Source of the DNA: Chthoniobacterales bacterium
Lineage (GTDB): Bacteria > Verrucomicrobiota > Verrucomicrobiia > Chthoniobacterales > UBA10450
Length of the DNA stretch: 64,000 nt
Reading direction: 5' to 3'
Assembly: GCA_035274845.1 (NCBI GenBank)
Contig: DATENU010000019.1
Location: 124,001-188,000 of the forward strand
Part shown: positions 8,152 to 54,409 of the stretch, one piece after another
Position numbering within the stretch: position 1 is the stretch's first letter
How the letters are laid out: the number at the start of each line of letters is the position of its first letter
The notes under the pieces: model-generated
Seen by the model: the letters and a program-made list of their open reading frames with translations, nothing else
What the model was told of the DNA's origin: nothing
Database searches by the model: none
Translations under genes and position numbers: made by a program

Positions 8152-8637
8152 TCAATTACACTCAACTTTCAACGCTTTAAGAATGCTTTTCGGGATTCCT
8201 TTCAGGTCTTCGCATTGATAATCGCCTTCGGAGAGCGCAACTCTCTTCCATTCCGTCCCGCGTAATTTCAATATCTGCGCAGTGCTCTGCGTGCTTTTCC
8301 GCTTGTCTTTGTGCATGAGACTCAGACCCACTTCGGCATACGCACCGGCGAATCCGCCGCTCGGATTTTCCGTCTTGCTTTGGCTAACCACCCGGCCGGA
8401 GGCAAGCTCAGCGGTGTACTCGGTTTTCCCGATCGTGACCACGAGATAAAAGTCTTCCTCCCCATGAGAATCCGGGTGGTTGGCTTCTTTCACAAGATGC
8501 GCAATCAGCGAAGCCTCCTTGGCCGGCACTTTCTTCGCCGACTGGGCTTCCGCCCTTTGAAAGGCTAACGCCAGCGTCAGACCAAGGCCGACGATCACAG
8601 TCAAAAATGTCGTGTGACGAATGCAGTGGTAAATCAT
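8152..8637 (-). CDS. Small secreted protein of unknown function
   Basis: A 161-residue protein with an N-terminal hydrophobic segment (FLTVIVGLGLTLALAFQ, cleavage near AEAQS) and a hydrophilic mature domain containing FYLVVTIGKTEYTAELASG. No family recognised. It is convergent with the unknown genes at 6681-8046. The mature domain could be a beta-rich fold, but this is only an impression from the alternating pattern. Confidence 0.6.
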   Translation of the reverse strand: MIYHCIRHTTFLTVIVGLGLTLALAFQRAEAQSAKKVPAKEASLIAHLVKEANHPDSHGEEDFYLVVTIGKTEYTAELASGRVVSQSKTENPSGGFAGAYAEVGLSLMHKDKRKSTQSTAQILKLRGTEWKRVALSEGDYQCEDLKGIPKSILKALKVECN

Positions 8638-8761
8638 AAAAAGCAGTCTATTCGCGACGCGCGCGCTGCCGCGAGCACAGAGAGAGCGCGACGCGCCGTG
8701 GCCTGCTGGCCGTTACGGCGCAGCAAACTACTTTTTGCCTGTGCGGTTTCGCTTGCGCGGC

Positions 8762-9112: not shown

Positions 9113-9141
9113 AATCTTGACGGCTTTAAGCCGTCAAGATT
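9113..9141. repeat. Perfect 29-bp palindrome, copy 1
   Basis: Two 14-bp arms (AATCTTGACGGCTT and its reverse complement) around a single T. A second copy at 62531-62559 is identical except that the central base is A, so it is the reverse complement of this one. It lies in the 374-bp non-coding stretch 8933-9306, which also holds the palindrome at 9168-9188 and a further repeat at 9273-9296; I see no gene there. Confidence 0.85.
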
Positions 9142-9167
9142 CTGGACGCGCGGGTATCGAAGGCAGC

Positions 9168-9188
9168 GGACGCCGCGGCGCGGCGTCC
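9168..9188. repeat. 21-bp GC-rich inverted repeat
   Basis: Nine-base arms GGACGCCGC / GCGGCGTCC around GGC form a strong hairpin. Part of the repeat-rich gap downstream of the DUF885 gene; it could act as a terminator for that gene, though no T-run follows. Confidence 0.55.
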
Positions 9189-9272
9189 CTACCACGTCCG
9201 TTGCCGGCGGCCTGACTGCCAAGGCGAAGCGAGCGAAGTTGGGGGCGGCGTTGGAACGCGCGCCAGAGTCGT

Positions 9273-46173: not shown

Positions 46174-48000
46174 TCAGCCGTAGATCACGAGCCGGATCGA
46201 ATCGGGCAACTGCTGCGCCACGTTCGTGACGACGCTGCCGCCGAGCAGTTTCGCCATCGCGGTGCGTTGCGAAGCGCCGATGATCAGGTAATCGACGCCC
46301 AGCGTTGCCGAAAGATCGAGAATCGTGGCGGCAGCGTCTTCGCTGACCGCGTAAACCGGTTGCACCGGTATGTCGCGCTCGGCGCCGAGGCGCATGGTCA
46401 ACGACATGATCGCGTTCGCCGCGGGATCGTCCTGCCATTTCGCGCGGCCGAGATTCGTCGGTGCGCCGGTGAAATAGACCGAGATTTCCTTCACGTAGAG
46501 AACACAGAGAGTCGCCTTGCGCAGTTGGGCTTCCTCGAGGGCGAAGGCGAGCGCCGGCGTGACGCCGCGTGCGGCCACCATGATTTTCTGGCCCTCGGAC
46601 AAGCGTGGCGCCATCGTCGCGGCGAGATCGGGTGTCACCATCTCCGCGACCTGCTTCGCCACGATCATCGTTCGTAGCCCCGAGACTTTATGCGAATAGG
46701 CCCGCAACGCGTACCCGGCGCCGAGGACGCATGCAGCGAAGAAAAGCGCTTCGGGCTTCGTCTTGGCGATGGTCACTTCGACCGCCGCCAGGACCACGAA
46801 GGTCGCCCCCATGATGAGGCGTTGATACCAGGGAAGGCCGAGCCGTTTGTTGAACGTGCACGATCCAAGATTGACCGCGATCGCGCCGACGACCCCGATC
46901 GCGTATAGACCGGCGAGAGATTCAAAATCCTTCGTGACCGCCAGGACGATGATCGGAATCACAACGGCAATCAGCAACGGGATCTGGGGCACGCCGTGCG
47001 AATTGAGCTTAGCGAGCGGCCGCGGCATCTCGCCATCCTGCGCCATCATGTAAATCACGCCGATCAGTGCGACCACCGCCGTGTTCACCGCGCTCAGCAG
47101 GAGCAAACCGAACACGATCCCGACGATGACGCTCAAGACGTGGCCGACGACGAGCCCTCCCGCCATCGCGCCGTAGACCTCGCCGAGGTAGCGCAACATG
47201 TCTTCCTTGTGCGCCGTCAACTGCGGCAAAAGATTTCGCGGAAACGAGAGCATCGCCCAGCCGAGGAGCGCGGTGCCCACCACCACCTCGATGGCGACCG
47301 GCACGATCGCCTTGGTCGCGGTGCGGGTAACCTTCGGGTGCTCCGGGGTCGAATCCGGATCGGCCTTCATCACGCCGGTGATGTTGGCGATGGCTTCGAC
47401 ACCGCTCAGCGCCAGGATTACGCCGACAAACGCGACCCAGGTGTGGGCCAGATTTTCGTGGGGCGGCTCGAGGTAGTCCGTGTTGAGATGGGGCGCCGCC
47501 AAAAGGATGATTGTCGCGACCACGATCACCGCCGGGATCGCCAGCCAGATGGAAACGCTGCCGCTGTGTTTTGGGCCGAAGAAATTGATGACCCCGACAG
47601 CGAGAATGAGTCCCATCGTCGCTACCGGCGCATATTTGGTCGGCACGCCGAGATAGCTGACGGCGGCCCATCCGCTCAGCGCGGCGGTGACAATGAAATT
47701 CGCGATGAGCAGGAGGGCGCCGGTCGAGGCGAGGAACCGGCTCTGTTGCCGGGCCGCCGAATAGACGCCGCCGCCATCAGGAAAGTGGGCGCAAACGATG
47801 ATGTAATTATAGGCGACCACCGCGGTCAGGATGCAGACCGCCAGGATGATCGGCAGGGAAGCGAACCCCGCCGCGACGAACGCCAGCCCGATCACATAGG
47901 CTTTGCTCGTGCCCCAGTCGCCATAGAGAAGGGCGGCGGCACGCTTCCAATCCACATTACGCGGCCGGTGCACAGCCGTCGGATCGACAATAGTAGCCAT
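46174..48000 (-). CDS. APC-superfamily transporter with C-terminal UspA-like domain (copy 1)
   Basis: A 608-residue inner-membrane protein. About 12 helices are followed by a C-terminal cytosolic domain of about 145 residues ending in GVDYLIIGASQRTAMAKLLGGSV, a UspA-like ATP-binding G.S.....(L)GSV motif. The first helix carries LLYGDWGTSKAYVIGLAF, similar in placement to the YGDxGTSPLY motif of Kup potassium transporters. ALSGVEAIANITGV lies in the middle. A close paralogue is at 56838. Substrate unknown: an amino acid or cation. Start ATG 48000; an upstream extension is not family-like. Confidence 0.9.
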   Translation of the reverse strand: MATIVDPTAVHRPRNVDWKRAAALLYGDWGTSKAYVIGLAFVAAGFASLPIILAVCILTAVVAYNYIIVCAHFPDGGGVYSAARQQSRFLASTGALLLIANFIVTAALSGWAAVSYLGVPTKYAPVATMGLILAVGVINFFGPKHSGSVSIWLAIPAVIVVATIILLAAPHLNTDYLEPPHENLAHTWVAFVGVILALSGVEAIANITGVMKADPDSTPEHPKVTRTATKAIVPVAIEVVVGTALLGWAMLSFPRNLLPQLTAHKEDMLRYLGEVYGAMAGGLVVGHVLSVIVGIVFGLLLLSAVNTAVVALIGVIYMMAQDGEMPRPLAKLNSHGVPQIPLLIAVVIPIIVLAVTKDFESLAGLYAIGVVGAIAVNLGSCTFNKRLGLPWYQRLIMGATFVVLAAVEVTIAKTKPEALFFAACVLGAGYALRAYSHKVSGLRTMIVAKQVAEMVTPDLAATMAPRLSEGQKIMVAARGVTPALAFALEEAQLRKATLCVLYVKEISVYFTGAPTNLGRAKWQDDPAANAIMSLTMRLGAERDIPVQPVYAVSEDAAATILDLSATLGVDYLIIGASQRTAMAKLLGGSVVTNVAQQLPDSIRLVIYG

Positions 48001-48051
48001 CAGGATTTCACAGGAAACGCGGCGAAGATTGCACCATCCGGTGCGCCGTGA

Positions 48052-48068
48052 CCAGTTCAATCGAAATC
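48052..48068. repeat. 17-bp direct repeat, left copy
   Basis: CCAGTTCAATCGAAATC occurs here and at 49393-49409. Both are followed within about 25 bp by TCAAACTTC. The two copies bracket 1.3 kb containing the MazF-type and RelE-type toxin-antitoxin genes. Confidence 0.75.
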
Positions 48069-48164
48069 CGATAGGGGCGAGGTCCGACTTCAAACTTCCC
48101 TGGGGCAGTTAATTCATCGTCGGCTCCGGCGGGTGTCGCTGATCGTATTCGCGGTCGATGTTGT

Positions 48165-48485
48165 TTACTCCATCCCGGTCGCGAATGCGAGTGCCTCGCG
48201 GATTTGCCGCAGCACATCGGATGGCACCTCACCCAGTTTGCGCTCCAGGCGAGTTCCGGCCAATGAAGCGACACCCTGGACATTCGCCACGCTCGTCTCA
48301 CGCAGAAAAACTAGCTTCGGTAGTTCTACCTCGTACCTGCTCCCTCGGTTCTGCGTCGTCAGCGGCACATAAATGATCAGCGCGCGTGGGGCCTGTGGGT
48401 CATGTCGCGATACGACTACTACCGGGCGAGTCTTTGCAGCAAGGCCGAGATCAGCCAGCCACACTTCACCGGGACGCGGGCTCAT
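48165..48485 (-). CDS. MazF/PemK-family toxin
   Basis: A 106-residue protein with RPGEVWLADLGLAAKTRPVV at the start, then ALIIYVPLTTQ and LPKLVFLRETSVANVQGVAS, the PemK/MazF ribonuclease pattern. MazF toxins cleave mRNA at short sites. It overlaps the antitoxin gene by 20 bp. Confidence 0.88.
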   Translation of the reverse strand: MSPRPGEVWLADLGLAAKTRPVVVVSRHDPQAPRALIIYVPLTTQNRGSRYEVELPKLVFLRETSVANVQGVASLAGTRLERKLGEVPSDVLRQIREALAFATGME

Positions 48486-48660
48486 CTAGCTGGTTTAGCA
48501 CTTCCTGTTCGACGACGCGAGAGCGCACCAGATCGAGAGCATCGTTGTCAGCCGCATCAATCACCTGCGATACAAGCGCTCGCACTTCTTGCGAGATTTC
48601 AGGCTTCCACTTGCTCAGCTTGGTGTCTAGCTTTTCGACGATAGCGTCCACAGCCAGCAT
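48466..48660 (-). CDS. Antitoxin of the MazF-type pair
   Basis: A 64-residue acidic protein (AVDAIVEKLDTKLSKWKPEI, then QEVRALVSQVIDAADNDALD). It is not clearly MazE; the helix pattern fits a small antitoxin of unknown class. Start at ATG 48660; the 3' end overlaps the toxin start. The gene order antitoxin-toxin is typical. Confidence 0.7.
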   Translation of the reverse strand: MLAVDAIVEKLDTKLSKWKPEISQEVRALVSQVIDAADNDALDLVRSRVVEQEVLNQLDEPASR

Positions 48661-48832
48661 TTTACCTCCACCGCTTTCGTGACGCAACCCGCAACCACCC
48701 CAAGCCGTCGCTCTATTCAACGAAGGTGATTTCGAAGCGGCGGCGCGGCCCGCGCACAATCAACTTGCCCTCGCTTTCCCCGAGAGCTTCGCCGGCATGT
48801 TGCAATCATACGGCTTCAGTGAAGAATGAGGG

Positions 48833-49030
48833 ATGCTCGAGGAGAACAACGTGGAGGTTGAGCTGGTGAAGCTCGCCGACGGGGCGCGCTTGCTCCGTTT
48901 CACGGATGCGATCTCTGGCCTTTCGGTCGAGCGGAAGCTCGATGCTGGTCGTTCGGTTGAGAAGCAGAAACGACAGCTCCGGGACGTTTTCGAAGCCGCC
49001 GTCAAACGCGCGCAACTCGCGTTCACCTGA
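48833..49030 (+). CDS. Small hypothetical protein
   Basis: A 65-residue charged protein: VEVELVKLADGARLLRFTDA, then VEKQKRQLRDVFEAAVKRAQ. No family recognised. Its frame is complete, but its opposite strand also has open frames, so the coding status is uncertain. Confidence 0.45.
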   Translation: MLEENNVEVELVKLADGARLLRFTDAISGLSVERKLDAGRSVEKQKRQLRDVFEAAVKRAQLAFT

Positions 49031-49036
49031 ACGCAG

Positions 49037-49117
49037 AGTCCGCTTCGTTACCTGCCTGCTCGGCCCCGGCAAGTCTCGATACGACTTCCAAAACTCAGTC
49101 GTTCCCGACGATTTCAT
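49037..49117 (-). pseudogene. RelE/HigB-type toxin, N-terminal remnant
   Basis: The minus strand frame starts at 49117 (23 bp overlap with the antitoxin) and gives SGTTEFWKSYRDLPGPSRQV then TKRT, the usual first 25 residues of this toxin class; the remainder is replaced by unrelated sequence. The active-site residues of a complete toxin would lie beyond, so it is inactive. Confidence 0.7.
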
Positions 49118-49316
49118 CCCTCGACCGGGTTTTGCCGCTCGCGTATTCTTCTTTCGCGCGCGCAATCACGCTATCAAAGCGGCCAGCTTCGACATCGTCT
49201 CCAAATTGTTTGTCCCAAAGGGCGTCGAGATGTTCACGAAGCTCCGCGGCCAGCTGCCATGCGTCTTTCGGCAGCAATTTGCGGATCGCTTCACGAATTT
49301 CACTCACGGTGCTCAT
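49095..49316 (-). CDS. Antitoxin-like protein (partner of the broken RelE-type toxin)
   Basis: A 73-residue protein: TVSEIREAIRKLLPKDAWQL, then ELREHLDALWDKQFGDD and a disordered tail. It is the kind of small antitoxin with an AbrB- or addiction-module-like N-terminal helix. Start ATG 49316. The toxin behind is truncated, so the antitoxin may be an orphan. The gap 49317-49615 holds the right copy of the direct repeat (49393-49409) and no gene. Confidence 0.65.
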   Translation of the reverse strand: MSTVSEIREAIRKLLPKDAWQLAAELREHLDALWDKQFGDDVEAGRFDSVIARAKEEYASGKTRSRDEIVGND

Positions 49317-49392
49317 TGGTTTGATTCTACAGTAGGAACGAGACGGATCAAAGCCGAGAGACCCCAACACGCCGGCTCCCGCCGGTTATTGG

Positions 49393-49409
49393 CCAGTTCA
49401 ATCGAAATC
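49393..49409. repeat. 17-bp direct repeat, right copy
   Basis: Exact copy of 48052-48068 (CCAGTTCAATCGAAATC). Could mark the edge of an inserted segment, but there is no integrase or other mobility gene. Confidence 0.75.
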
Positions 49410-49615
49410 GAGAGAAGTCCCGGTGTCAAACTTCTCCTCGCGGTCGCTGGTTGAAGCACCATCGGATGGCCCTCAAGGCGTGAGAGCGACTTTTCCGCTT
49501 TGCTGGTTGCACCGCCAGTGGCAGCGCTGATAAATTGCCCCCAACCCTCCTGCCATGTCCTCTGCCTTTCTCCTCTAACCGAGATAGATGGAAAATTTAT
49601 TGTCTAAGTCTCCTT

Positions 49616-49882
49616 ATGCCGCTCGACCATTTGGCTATGAATACCAATACACATATTAGCGAATTCGTTCCTGGGCGAGGATACCGCGTTTTCGTGTCCG
49701 ACGCGGACCTCGTCTCATTTCGCATTTATGTCGCGAAAGCCAGCGCCGAAGAGCGTGAGCGATACTCTCTCACGTCTGCTGAGGAGCCAGCGACCGGTGG
49801 AGCATATTACTTTCTTGGGTTATACCGAACTCCGAGCGAGATGGACCGCTTTCTGATCGAGTGGCATCTTCGTATAGACTGA
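49616..49882 (+). CDS. Small hypothetical protein
   Basis: An 88-residue protein (ATG 49616; ATG 49637 is an alternative). Core: ISEFVPGRGYRVFVSDADLV and PSEMDRFLIEWHLRID. No family recognised. It is the first of several same-direction small genes in an AT-richer accessory stretch. Confidence 0.5.
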   Translation: MPLDHLAMNTNTHISEFVPGRGYRVFVSDADLVSFRIYVAKASAEERERYSLTSAEEPATGGAYYFLGLYRTPSEMDRFLIEWHLRID

Positions 49883-49951
49883 CACCGTTCCAGCCCGCGC
49901 TCATTCTCGGTGGCCGTTGCATCTCTCTCTTTAGTCGTTCGCTAGTTCGTT

Positions 49952-50173
49952 ATGGAATCCGACCCAATCATGCTCTCGCTTTTTGATGTTGTCGGCTTCG
50001 AGAACCGTTTGAACCGGATCGGCTTGAATGACCTCTTTCACGCGTACGACGCCCTGATCAAAGTCGTTGATGCGATGGATGGGGGACTGGTTTTCGGTCC
50101 TGCCTCCAGCGGCGGAGGCAAGATTGAAGTGATTTATGGCACGGACCATCCACAAAATGAACCGAAACTCTAA
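49952..50173 (+). CDS. Small hypothetical protein, perhaps N-terminal fragment
   Basis: A 73-residue protein starting MESDPIMLSLFDVVGFENRL then IGLNDLFHAYDALIKVVDAM. The SLFDVVGFE..L...GL pattern looks like the start of a larger protein type that I cannot name with certainty, so truncation is possible. It is followed by the next gene after 3 bp. Confidence 0.5.
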   Translation: MESDPIMLSLFDVVGFENRLNRIGLNDLFHAYDALIKVVDAMDGGLVFGPASSGGGKIEVIYGTDHPQNEPKL

Positions 50174-50176
50174 GCA

Positions 50177-50524
50177 ATGCCGCGTAAGAGAAAGACCGCT
50201 GATGAGCGCCGCGCGGAACGCGATGAGGCCGTATGGCGTGCGTGGAACGAGTTCCGGCCGAAGCTTGAAGCGATTCAATCATACGCGGAGGCGCTGAACT
50301 TGGTGGCACACGCGCCCCCTGTTGATACTCCTGGTCGTCCGTTCTACTCGAATCTCGGCTTTTTCCTTCAGGCATTTACCCCGCCCCTTGGAGCCACGGC
50401 TCGCGAGAAAAGCATTTATATCACGCTCATTAAGCGGATGGATGCCACGGGCGAGTTGAAGGCGGGTGAGGCGCCTCGAATCATAGCGGCGTTAGAAAAA
50501 GCGATTTCGGAACAATGGTGGTAG
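50177..50524 (+). CDS. Hypothetical protein
   Basis: A 115-residue charged protein starting RKRKTADERRAERDEAVWRA and ending EKAISEQWW. No family recognised. It lies 3 bp after the 49952 gene and about 66 bp before the HEPN-like gene, in the same direction. Confidence 0.5.
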   Translation: MPRKRKTADERRAERDEAVWRAWNEFRPKLEAIQSYAEALNLVAHAPPVDTPGRPFYSNLGFFLQAFTPPLGATAREKSIYITLIKRMDATGELKAGEAPRIIAALEKAISEQWW

Positions 50525-50590
50525 TGATTCCAACGCGCGCAGGAACCAGGCAATGCGGCGAAGTCGAAAGCGTTCGGAGTCGCTGGTCTT

Positions 50591-51316
50591 GTGTCTCGTG
50601 AGGCGGCTTCCGTGGCGATATTGAAATCGAATCGTTCAGAGTTCGAGACTGTGAACAATCTATTATTGCTCGACAGTAATCTACATCATATCGCCTTTGA
50701 GCTATCGCGTCCCCGTCCCAGCTTCTTTCGGGCTGCCCGTGAATCACATCTTGCGTTACTCCGTTCGATGGTCGAGGCCCTTCGCGACACAGCTAACCTC
50801 GCAATCGTCGGCCGCCGAAAAAAGGATCGCCGGACACAATACCAGATCGGCAATCAACCGTGGCTGGAGATCCAGCGGATCGAGGTTGCCGGATGCCGGA
50901 AGGCGTGGCGCTTCTCACCCCCACATCCGTGCTCCCCTCCCCACATCGCGCCATCAAAACCGCAACAATCCGTGGCGAACGGAAAGCACCTGGTTGGCTT
51001 CTACGAATTGCTTGCGATGATTCAGACCGATTGTTTCATGGTTCACGCTCATGGTGCGCGTCCGCCCCAAATCAGCGATGAAGAGCTTCGCGAGATCGAA
51101 TGGCTTCACGAGAATGTCCGCAACGAGTTCGAGCATTACATCCCGAAGTCATATTATGTCGGCATTGCCGCTCTCGTGTCCGCTGCTCATCTTGCGCTTC
51201 GCATTACCCACTGGCTACTTTACGATTCTGGCACCGTGCTTTCCATTTACATTCCACGTGGCGGACGCACCCGGCTTGCGCGAATCATCAGCCGCCTTCA
51301 ACGCCTCGCCTCGTGA
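50591..51316 (+). CDS. HEPN-like protein (putative)
   Basis: A 241-residue protein from GTG 50591. Near residue 177 it has IEWLHENVRNEFEHYIPKSY; RNEFEH fits the RNxxxH (Rx4H) motif of HEPN RNase domains, and the flanking helices (LVGFYELLAMIQTDCFM and AALVSAAHLALRITHWLLYD) fit an all-helical domain. HEPN proteins act as toxins or RNases in many defence and toxin-antitoxin systems. No nucleotidyltransferase partner is next to it; the next gene overlaps by GTGA. Function inferred from one motif. Confidence 0.55.
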   Translation: MSREAASVAILKSNRSEFETVNNLLLLDSNLHHIAFELSRPRPSFFRAARESHLALLRSMVEALRDTANLAIVGRRKKDRRTQYQIGNQPWLEIQRIEVAGCRKAWRFSPPHPCSPPHIAPSKPQQSVANGKHLVGFYELLAMIQTDCFMVHAHGARPPQISDEELREIEWLHENVRNEFEHYIPKSYYVGIAALVSAAHLALRITHWLLYDSGTVLSIYIPRGGRTRLARIISRLQRLAS

Positions 51317-51730
51317 ACTGGCAACTTCTTGGACCACTCCTCATCACGACCGCCCTTGCCGTTGGCGGTTGGATTGTCGGTCACGTTCTCGCCGCTCGGC
51401 GCGACCGAGCGAACAAGAGGCGAGAACAACTCATTGGTTATCTTATCGAGGCTTATCGACGTTTGGAGTCATCAGCACACCGCCGAGATCAGTTGGACGC
51501 CTCTAAATTCGAGTCAGCTGTTGCAACTCAATCTGCCGGGCAGTTCCAAACCGCTGAATGTCTGGTTCAGACGTTGATTGCCGAGTTCGTCGCCGGAGGC
51601 GGCGCTATTATGGACGACTTTGATTAAGCATTTTCGGCGTGATCTCAGAGCGGAGTTGCGATTGCAGTCTGTGCCCGATCAAGTTTTACATTTGCGCGTC
51701 CGGGATGAGAAGCGTCCGAGGCTGAAATGA
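51313..51730 (+). pseudogene. Membrane-anchored protein, frameshifted near its end
   Basis: GTG 51313 overlaps the stop of the HEPN-like gene. The first 104 residues hold a TM helix (GPLLITTALAVGGWIVGHVL) and NKRREQLIGYLIEAYRRLES, then stop at 51627. In the +1 frame similarity-like sequence continues (LIKHFRRDLRAELRLQSVPD, then QVLHLRVRD) to TGA at 51730. One extra T in GACTTTGATTAAG near 51616 would explain both. The expected product would be about 138 residues. Confidence 0.65.
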
Positions 51731-51916
51731 ATCGCGATTTGATCATCATTGAAGAGACCTCAACTGGCTATTCCGCCTACTCGCCGGATGTGCCCCGCCT
51801 GCATGGCGACGGGACGCACCCAGCCCGAGGTGGAAAATGAGATGCACGACGCTATCGAATTCCATCTCGAAGGATTACAAGCGGAGGGAATGCCGATTCC
51901 CGAGCCGTTGCGCTAA
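51727..51916 (+). pseudogene. HicB-family antitoxin, frameshifted
   Basis: ATG 51727 (ATGA overlap with the previous gene) begins NRDLIIIEETSTGYSAYSPD then VP, the start of a HicB protein, but runs to a premature stop at 51840. A shifted frame continues ACMATGRTQPEVENEMHDAI then EFHLEGLQAEGMPIPEP to the stop at 51916, the rest of a HicB. A single base change in the GTGCCCCGCCTGC stretch would restore the frame. No HicA toxin is next to it. Confidence 0.8.
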
Positions 51917-51924
51917 AACAACGC

Positions 51925-52293
51925 TCACTTCCGGTTTTTGTCCGCCAGGGCCATCAAACCGATCATCGCTATCACGAGAACTCCGAACGCGACCGAAGCT
52001 CGAGCATTAACCGCGTATATCAACTCAAGAACGCCTTGCACCACAAGAATGCCGCCAATCCAGCCTGCCGCGAAGATGAATATCGACAGCTTGCGGTTCT
52101 TCGTTGGCAGGCCGTCTCTAAAAATTATCGTAGTACCGACGAGAAGGGGCAAAGCTAAAGCAAATTTCCACATAGCGCCGCGGTCTACGTCTTGTGGATC
52201 AGACTTAACCGCTAACTGTGTAATTGCGACAAAAGATGCGCCCGCGAGAGCAGCGAACAGAGCGCTGAAAACTCTTTCGTATTTCGGACTCAT
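51925..52293 (-). CDS. Four-helix membrane protein of unknown function
   Basis: A 122-residue protein with four hydrophobic segments (ALFAALAGASFVAITQLAV, FALALPLLVGTTIIFR, IFIFAAGWIGGILVVQGVLE, VAFGVLVIAMIGLMALAD). No family recognised. It is convergent with the HicB-like remnant. Confidence 0.6.
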   Translation of the reverse strand: MSPKYERVFSALFAALAGASFVAITQLAVKSDPQDVDRGAMWKFALALPLLVGTTIIFRDGLPTKNRKLSIFIFAAGWIGGILVVQGVLELIYAVNARASVAFGVLVIAMIGLMALADKNRK

Positions 52294-52474
52294 GAAGCGA
52301 TCTTATCACGGTGAAACCGAAGAGCGAATTCGACTGCCGGCTACCGGTCACTTCGAAGCGTTCCGCGACAATGGACAGGGTGGCTCGCAGATAGCTTGGT
52401 CATAATCTCGCCGAGATTTGAACGCCGTTGCTTCAAAACGTGCTTTTGACGGCGACGCAGCGCCCCCCCACAGC

Positions 52475-54409
52475 TCAAACTTCCACCCGCGCTCCGAGCT
52501 CAACGACCCCGTTCGGGGGGAGGCAGAAGTAGGAGGTGACGTCGCCGGCGTTTCGGGTCATCCAGGCAAAGATGGAGCCGCGCCAGGAGGAGAGACCGAG
52601 TTTGCGGGTGGCGAGGATCGTTTCCCGGCCGATGAAGTACGTCGTCCGCATCGGATTGAACTGGACGCGCTTTTCGTTCGCGGTTTTCAAGGCGGCGGGG
52701 ACGTCCGGTTTTTCCATGAAACCAAAGTGAATCTGGACTCGCCAGAAACCTTCCTCCAGTTGTTCGATCGCGACCCGGTCTTTCGAGTTGGTCAGATATG
52801 GGACTTCCTCGGTTCGGACGGTCAACACGACCACCTGTTGGTGCAGGACTTTGTTGTGCTTGAGATTGTGGAGAAGGGCGAGGGGAGTTCCGTCGCGATT
52901 TCCCGACATGTAAACTCCGGTCCCGGGCACGCGCGGGATATTTTGGCTTTTCAGATCGGAAAGAAAACCATCGAGCGGGAGGCACATCTCGCCGAGCCGG
53001 TTCCGCAGGACGCGGCGCCCTTTTCGCCAGGTCAACATCAGAAACAGAATGCAGGCCGAGACCAGGAGCGGAAACCAGCCGCCGTGCGCGACCTTGAGCA
53101 TGTTGGCGCTGAAGAAGGCGAGGTCGATGATGATGAAAAACGCGGCCACGGGCAGCGCCGCGAACGCCGGCCAATGCCAGCGACGCCGGGCCACGACATA
53201 AAAGAGGATCGTGGTAATCAGCATTGTCGTCGTGATGGCCACGCCGTAAGCGGCGGCGAGGTTGCTCGAAGATCCGAAGCCGAGCACGAGGCCGATGGAG
53301 GAAAGCATCAGCGCCCAATTAACGATGGGCACGTAGATCTGGCCGATAATTCTTGCCGACGTGTATTTCACTTTCAGGCGTGGCATGTAACCGAGCTGAA
53401 TCGCCTGCATGGTCAGCGAAAACGCGCCGCTAATGATGGCCTGCGACGCAATCACGGCCGCGGCCGTGGCCAGGATGACCATTGGGAAAAGTGTCCAGGA
53501 AGGGGTCATGTGGAAAAACGGATTCACGGCGGCATCGGGGTGCCGGAGCAGGAGCGCGCCTTGCCCGAAATAATTCAGGGTCAACGCCGGGAGTACCACC
53601 GCAAACCAGGTCAGACGAATCGGTCGCGTCCCGAAATGCCCGATGTCGGCATAGAGCGCCTCACCGCCGGTGATGGCGAGGAAGACGGCACCGAGAACCA
53701 CGAATCCGCGGGAACCGTTGTTCACGAAAAATTGGATTCCCTGGAGGGGATTAATCGCCGAGAGCACTTCCGGAACGCGCTGGATTTGGTGAATTCCAAG
53801 CAGCGCGATCGCGGCAAACCAGAGTAGCGTCACCGGGCCAAAGACTTTGCCCACGCCGGTGGTTCCGCGGGATTGGAAGAGGAACAAACCGATCAGGATC
53901 ACGATCGCGATCGGGACGACGAACCGATTGAGCAGCGGCGTCGCCACATCCAATCCTTCGACGGCGCTCATGACCGAGATGGCGGGCGTGATCATGCCGT
54001 CGGCGTAGAGCAGGGCCGCGCCGAATAATCCCAGGAGGAAGAAAATCTTCCCGCGCCGGACGACGTCAGTGACGAGGGTAGCGAGGGCGAGGATCCCGCC
54101 TTCACCGCGATTATCGGCGCGGAGAATCAGGATCAGGTATTTGACGGAAATGATGAGGAGGAGCGACCAGAGAATGAGGGAGAGCACCCCAATGACATTG
54201 GCGGGGCTGGGAGGAATGGCGTGTGGCCCGTAAAAGCATTCGCGGAGCGCGTAAAGGGGGCTCGTCCCGATGTCGCCATAAACGATCCCCAGGCTGGCGA
54301 GACAGAGAAACAGCAGCCGCTTTTTATGGTCCTTTGATTCTGTCGCGGCGGGCAACTGAGGCGTCACTTTGGGAGGATCGGCGGTCAGGGTTGGCGGAGC
54401 AGAGTTCAC
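52475..54409 (-). CDS. kup: Kup-type low-affinity potassium transporter
   Basis: A 644-residue K+ uptake permease. The family hallmark GIVYGDIGTSPLYALRECF is near residue 41, followed by LRADNRGEGGILALATLV, and GDIGHFGTRPIRLTWFAVVL (usually GHFG...I..sW). The C-terminal cytosolic domain ends the protein. The start is GTG 54409. It is divergent from the KdpD-like kinase, which suggests regulation by K+ limitation. Confidence 0.96.
   Translation of the reverse strand: MNSAPPTLTADPPKVTPQLPAATESKDHKKRLLFLCLASLGIVYGDIGTSPLYALRECFYGPHAIPPSPANVIGVLSLILWSLLLIISVKYLILILRADNRGEGGILALATLVTDVVRRGKIFFLLGLFGAALLYADGMITPAISVMSAVEGLDVATPLLNRFVVPIAIVILIGLFLFQSRGTTGVGKVFGPVTLLWFAAIALLGIHQIQRVPEVLSAINPLQGIQFFVNNGSRGFVVLGAVFLAITGGEALYADIGHFGTRPIRLTWFAVVLPALTLNYFGQGALLLRHPDAAVNPFFHMTPSWTLFPMVILATAAAVIASQAIISGAFSLTMQAIQLGYMPRLKVKYTSARIIGQIYVPIVNWALMLSSIGLVLGFGSSSNLAAAYGVAITTTMLITTILFYVVARRRWHWPAFAALPVAAFFIIIDLAFFSANMLKVAHGGWFPLLVSACILFLMLTWRKGRRVLRNRLGEMCLPLDGFLSDLKSQNIPRVPGTGVYMSGNRDGTPLALLHNLKHNKVLHQQVVVLTVRTEEVPYLTNSKDRVAIEQLEEGFWRVQIHFGFMEKPDVPAALKTANEKRVQFNPMRTTYFIGRETILATRKLGLSSWRGSIFAWMTRNAGDVTSYFCLPPNGVVELGARVEV

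What the first reader, a model, noticed from the sequence alone, without database searches (positions are those of the whole stretch)
49616..51916. Candidate HEPN-based accessory operon
Six same-direction genes with short gaps or overlaps: 49616, 49952, 50177, the HEPN-like 50591 (RNEFEH motif near residue 177), a membrane-anchored protein overlapping by GTGA, and a HicB-like gene overlapping by ATGA. None but HicB is a known family, and they lie beside toxin-antitoxin loci. This may be an undescribed RNase-based defence or addiction unit with a membrane component.
Basis: inference. Interest (0 to 1): 0.65.

Follow-up and report, generated by a model that had tools for sequence, protein, structure and literature searches.

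The report
Decayed integron cassettes with HEPN gene
The six genes look like an eroded string of mobile gene cassettes left by an integron rather than one working operon; one cassette still encodes an intact-looking RNA-cutting (HEPN-type) enzyme of a family missing from the domain databases searched, while the membrane gene and the HicB gene are broken.

Summary
The 241-aa ORF belongs to a small, diverged family with no Pfam, NCBIfam, PADLOC or PHROGs match. R and H of the RNEFEH motif are invariant in 10 homologues, and a relative's predicted structure matches HEPN structures best (2hsb Z 10.0, HEPN toxin 8yuf Z 8.7, then Csm6). The "operon" lies in a 4.4-kb insert between two conserved genes; a congener has about 139 bp there. 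Degraded copies of the genus's integron attC sites lie just upstream of the HEPN gene (50550-50604), between genes 1 and 2 (49885-49926) and at the insert's left end (48114-48159). They are the three best profile hits in 64 kb; 0 of 400 shuffles reach them. Congeners carry integron integrases; this genome has 35 attC hits but no full integrase. The membrane gene's closest relative (78% identity, another species) is a single integron cassette between attC sites, without HEPN. Here it has a 1-nt frameshift, and HicB is frameshifted and truncated. HEPN and membrane families co-occur in none of 12 other loci. Best reading: remnant cassette array carrying one integron-type HEPN RNase gene.

The parts
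48064..52470 (.). Whole insert between the permease gene (minus strand, ends 46174-48093) and the kup gene (minus strand, 52475-54409)
   Evidence: Congener G410 has the two flanking genes about 139 bp apart
48114..48159 (+). Degraded attC site (3' half)
   Evidence: Best ungapped weight-matrix hit in 64 kb, 21.4 bits; second-best profile hit; BLAST E 0.002 to a congener attC
48165..48485 (-). MazF/PemK-type toxin gene, with a partner antitoxin-like ORF at 48466-48759
   Evidence: PF02452 E 1.2e-14; partner from ORF list only
48806..49370 (-). Two small overlapping ORFs resembling a second toxin-antitoxin pair; no family match
   Evidence: ORF list; no Pfam match; toxin-antitoxin reading is a guess
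49616..49882 (+). Gene 1, 88 aa, no known family
49885..49943 (+). Degraded attC site between genes 1 and 2
   Evidence: Third-best profile hit in 64 kb; second covariance-model hit, E 2.3; 0 of 400 shuffles reach the third-best score
49952..50173 (+). Gene 2, 73 aa, no known family
50177..50524 (+). Gene 3, 115 aa, no known family
50550..50604 (+). Degraded attC site immediately upstream of the HEPN gene
   Evidence: 75% over 56 nt to a G407 attC, E 8e-5; best profile hit in 64 kb; best covariance-model hit, E 1.2; 0 of 400 shuffles
50591..51316 (+). HEPN-family gene, 241 aa from GTG 50591, more likely 234 aa from GTG 50612; RNxxxH at 51119-51136
   Evidence: R and H invariant in 10 homologues; model of relative matches HEPN folds
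51313..51730 (+). Membrane-anchored protein gene, frameshifted: open frame 51313-51627, displaced C-terminal frame 51628-51730
   Evidence: Alignment with intact 136-aa G407 gene; displaced frame matches the family profile at E 1e-6
51727..51916 (+). HicB-like antitoxin gene, frameshifted near 51797 and truncated at its end
   Evidence: PF15919 match in the second frame; intact relatives in the family
51925..52293 (-). 122-aa hydrophobic ORF at the right end of the insert, no family match

Best explanation
The run is the remnant of an integron cassette array (a cluster of attC sites without an integrase) that accreted between two conserved genes and is decaying; it is not a purpose-built operon. 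One cassette still carries an intact-looking gene for a HEPN-fold protein with an R-N-x3-H active site, predicted to be a metal-independent RNase. Most likely it works alone as a stress- or phage-triggered RNA-cutting protein, as proposed for other integron-borne HEPN proteins. The membrane gene and the HicB gene are separate former cassettes, now frameshifted, and their overlaps with their neighbours are probably deletion junctions. Shown: the insert, attC relics, frameshifts, motif conservation, lack of co-occurrence. Supported by a model: the HEPN fold. Inferred: RNase activity, its trigger, and whether this copy is expressed at all.
For: Empty site in congener G410. Three degraded attC sites inside the insert, at gene boundaries, same strand; best three profile hits in 64 kb and 0 of 400 shuffles. 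Integron integrase above the curated cut-off in 5 of 7 congeners, 35 attC hits in this genome and 124 in congener G409, arrays on the same contig. Closest relative of the membrane gene is a lone cassette between attC sites in G407. Frameshifts in membrane gene and HicB. Two HEPN relatives in G165 end in attC-form hairpins, and G165 has an integron integrase. HEPN motif and fold. HEPN in integron cassettes is already described (PMC3710099).
Against: Each degraded attC is weak on its own (nhmmer E 0.025-0.23; covariance model E 1.2 and 2.3). No attC trace remains between HEPN, membrane gene and HicB, so these three could once have shared one multi-gene cassette. The two frameshifts are single-base insertions in an assembled genome and could be assembly errors, although the long flanking genes are intact. 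The conserved W39 of the HEPN family is missing in the window copy, so this copy may be drifting too.
Confidence: 0.78

Rival explanations
1. One reading: HEPN, membrane protein and HicB form one translationally coupled toxin or defence operon (perhaps one multi-gene cassette), with the membrane protein as anchor or sensor and HicB as antitoxin.
For: Stop/start overlaps GTGA and, in the displaced frame, ATGA; no attC trace between the three genes; HEPN motif conserved.
Against: Families do not co-occur in 12 other loci; the membrane gene stands alone in an integron cassette in G407; both partners are frameshifted here.
Confidence: 0.1
2. The HEPN-like protein is not an RNase but a non-catalytic helical-bundle protein, e.g. 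a regulator or an RNA-binding partner.
For: No database family names it; no sequence match to any solved structure; Foldseek finds nothing; Z of 8-10 can be chance for helical bundles (note); the best match 2hsb belongs to a HEPN group that usually lacks the histidine.
Against: R, H and one proline are the only invariant positions in 10 sequences that are 17-28% identical to the window protein; the motif sits at a helix end and loop start, as described for HEPN RNases; six of the seven best VIA-align matches are HEPN proteins.
Confidence: 0.15
3. The insert arose by ordinary illegitimate recombination or a transposon, and the attC resemblance is chance.
For: A 20-bp direct repeat brackets the toxin-antitoxin block; single attC relics are weak.
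Against: Three best hits all in the insert, on one strand and at gene boundaries, 0 of 400 shuffles; closest membrane-gene relative is an integron cassette.
Confidence: 0.08

Closest known systems
Integron cassette HEPN family (PDB 3jrt; Anantharaman et al. 2013, PMC3710099)
   Same: HEPN domain protein carried by an integron cassette; RNase role proposed for stress-induced dormancy
   Different: No sequence match to any PDB chain, so it is another HEPN family; it has a beta-hairpin segment between helices in the long subfamily; found in a lineage outside Gammaproteobacteria
CALIN elements (clusters of attC sites lacking an integron integrase; IntegronFinder, PMC9024848)
   Same: Small, mostly unknown genes, attC sites, no integrase nearby
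   Different: The attC sites in the window are degraded and below the detection level of a covariance model of intact sites
HEPN/MNT (HepT/MntA) toxin-antitoxin systems (PMC7641770)
   Same: HEPN-type RN-x3-H motif; HEPN toxin 8yuf among the best structural matches
   Different: No nucleotidyltransferase partner among the neighbouring ORFs with a Pfam or NCBIfam match
HicB-like antitoxins (PF15919)
   Same: Sequence of the last gene matches, and intact relatives occur in the same family of bacteria
   Different: Frameshifted and truncated here, no HicA partner recognised

Membership tests
HEPN superfamily | Rx4-6H motif with a polar residue (N, D or H) after R | tested here: met
   R and H invariant in 10 of 10, N in 9 and D in 1; definition from PMC3710099
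HEPN superfamily | All-helical HEPN fold with the motif at the end of helix 3 | tested here: inconclusive
   Model of relative L006 (pLDDT 83) ranks HEPN structures first, Z up to 10.0, but such Z can be chance for helical bundles and Foldseek found none
HEPN superfamily | Metal-independent RNase activity | not testable with these tools
   Needs a biochemical assay
Integron cassette HEPN (3jrt family) | Sequence relationship to 3jrt | tested here: inconclusive
   No PDB chain matched profiles of the family; 3jrt not listed by VIA-align, which does not exclude it
Integron cassette array / CALIN | attC sites between the genes | tested here: inconclusive
   Three degraded sites, jointly beyond 400 shuffles, each weak alone
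Integron cassette array / CALIN | Host lineage with integron integrase and attC arrays | tested here: met
   Integrase over cut-off in 5 of 7 congeners; 35 attC hits in this genome
Complete integron | Integron integrase next to the array | tested here: not met
   No integrase over the cut-off in the genome
   0 of 12 other loci
HEPN/MNT toxin-antitoxin | Adjacent nucleotidyltransferase antitoxin | tested here: not met
   No such match among neighbouring ORFs
Known anti-phage defence systems (PADLOC) | Profile match of a component | tested here: not met
   No match for the window ORFs or the 10 HEPN family members

The most novel reading that the evidence does not exclude
An undescribed HEPN RNase family, spread by integron cassettes and plasmids, acts as a single-gene phage-triggered defence, with a family-specific beta-hairpin segment as its sensor.
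Probability: 0.2. Interest if true: 0.55.

Novelty: new member of a known kind. Interest (0 to 1): 0.33.

Why it matters
It shows how a decaying integron array can look like a purpose-built toxin operon once its attC sites have eroded, a warning for guilt-by-association searches for defence systems. It also adds a HEPN family missing from Pfam, NCBIfam, PADLOC and PHROGs whose motif is kept across distant bacteria, and documents rich integrons in a lineage that is probably Chthoniobacterales (inference). Work cited in PMC12444791 found that many Vibrio cholerae cassettes of unknown function encode phage defence, so intact members of this family are reasonable candidates for a test.

Tried and rejected
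Pfam, NCBIfam, PADLOC and PHROGs for the ORFs: no family except HicB-like. Phage records and IMG/VR scans for the HEPN family, the membrane family, gene 1 and gene 3: nothing. Plasmid scans for genes 1 and 3: nothing. Weak hits L004, L005, L007 and L008 were discarded as not convincing homologues. Foldseek against PDB gave no match. A covariance model of intact attC sites is not sensitive to the degraded sites. A consensus pattern count was not informative. The Burkholderia plasmid gene beside the membrane homologue was tested as a HEPN relative: DUF5677 only at E 0.11 and no match to the family profile. Repeating the HEPN search in the class gave the same few genomes. 3jrt appeared in neither PDB comparison.

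Full report
What is in the sequence. Two corrections matter. The ORF at 51313 ends at 51627 only because of a one-base insertion near 51622. Aligned with an intact homologue from a congener (G407, L011:8243-8653, 136 aa, 78% identical), the rest of the gene continues in another frame to 51730, and that displaced frame alone matches the family profile at E 1e-6. The HicB gene is also broken: ATG 51727 gives 37 codons, the homology resumes in another frame near 51797, and it ends about ten residues before its intact relatives do.

Where it sits. The run is part of a 4.4-kb insert (about 48064-52470) between an APC-type permease gene and a kup-like gene (names by eye from the translations). In congener G410 these two genes are about 139 bp apart. 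Next to the six ORFs, on the other strand, lie a PemK/MazF-family toxin, an antitoxin-like partner and two more small ORFs.

Integron traces. In G407 the membrane gene is a single gene between attC sites: a 119.8-bit covariance-model hit directly upstream at L011:8103-8225 and further sites at 8571-8698 and 9133-9200 (the first and the last two were among the 15 sites used to build the model). Five of seven congeners carry an integron integrase above the curated cut-off, and attC arrays lie beside those I fetched. This genome has no integrase over the cut-off but has 35 attC hits, including two arrays on the same contig. Five attC sequences from G407, chosen before looking at the window, were compared with it by BLAST: the best match, E 8e-5, is 50550-50604, immediately upstream of the HEPN gene, and the next is 48123-48153. 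A profile of 18 congener attC sites puts its three best hits in 64 kb, both strands, at 50564-50603, 48114-48150 and 49885-49926, all inside the insert and on the + strand. None of 400 dinucleotide shuffles of the insert reaches the best or the third-best score. One by one the hits are weak (nhmmer E 0.025 to 0.23, covariance model E 1.2 and 2.3), as expected for degraded sites. The GTG at 50591 lies inside such a site, so translation more likely begins at GTG 50612.

The HEPN gene. Searches in 387 genomes of the phylum and 384 of the class found relatives in four other genomes (G165 with two copies, G233, G491, G469), and in Alteromonas, Methylomonas, Sphingobium and Methylobacterium plasmids. 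In an alignment of 10 sequences, R, H and one proline are the only invariant positions, and N after R is kept in 9 of 10. A model of relative L006 has pLDDT 83 and pTM 0.84. VIA-align ranks a HEPN protein (2hsb, Z 10.0, 124 aligned of 126 residues, rmsd 3.5), a HEPN toxin (8yuf, Z 8.7) and Csm6 RNases (Z 7.8, 6.4, 5.6) at the top. Z values of this size can arise by chance for helical bundles, and Foldseek alone found nothing, but the agreement of motif, motif position and ranking makes HEPN the best reading. Anantharaman et al. [quoted passage not shown] PMC3710099). Both G165 relatives end in sequences of attC form within runs of small co-directional genes; four of five such sites fold more stably than nearly all shuffles, although the site at the end of the L028 copy does not fold as one single attC hairpin in that prediction.

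Is it a unit? Profiles of the membrane family and the HEPN family were run over loci holding either one: 0 of 9 HEPN loci have the membrane gene, and 0 of 3 other membrane loci have HEPN. Homology to the G407 membrane gene starts exactly at the start codon in the window, with HEPN sequence instead of attC upstream, which reads as a deletion junction. A former multi-gene cassette cannot be excluded, because no attC trace remains between HEPN, membrane gene and HicB.

Mechanism. Most likely the HEPN protein is a metal-independent RNase that uses R and H to cleave RNA and is toxic or protective when triggered. Its trigger, its target and the expression of this copy are unknown. This is inference from the superfamily, not shown here.

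Verdict. Ordinary in kind, instructive in detail: a decayed integron array with one member of a previously unnamed HEPN family. The taxonomic placement (probably Chthoniobacterales, from the very small genomes held in the same order) is an inference.

Noticed in passing
window 48049-48068 and 49390-49409: A 20-bp direct repeat (core CAGTTCAATCGAAATC, only these two copies in the 4.5-Mb genome) brackets the minus-strand toxin-antitoxin block; a diverged single copy lies at the G410 empty site. It may mark a separate insertion step.
   Followed up: partly
G409 (congener), contig C54 and others: 124 attC hits, a large sedentary integron in this lineage.
   Followed up: no
G000 contig C19:74343-76757 (L086) and C19:28633-29935 (L087): Intact attC arrays without integrase on the same contig as the window but outside it.
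   Followed up: partly
L072:2024-3624 (Sphingobium sp. YG1 plasmid): A HEPN-family relative starts on the last base of an upstream gene annotated as HNH endonuclease signature protein, a possible two-gene defence pair.
   Followed up: no
L013 (Dongshaea marina plasmid) and L012 (Burkholderia ubonensis plasmid): Homologues of the membrane gene lie beside transposon recombinase or integrase genes, so that family is a mobile accessory gene in its own right.
   Followed up: no
window 51925-52293 (minus strand): 122-aa hydrophobic ORF at the right end of the insert without a family match.
   Followed up: no
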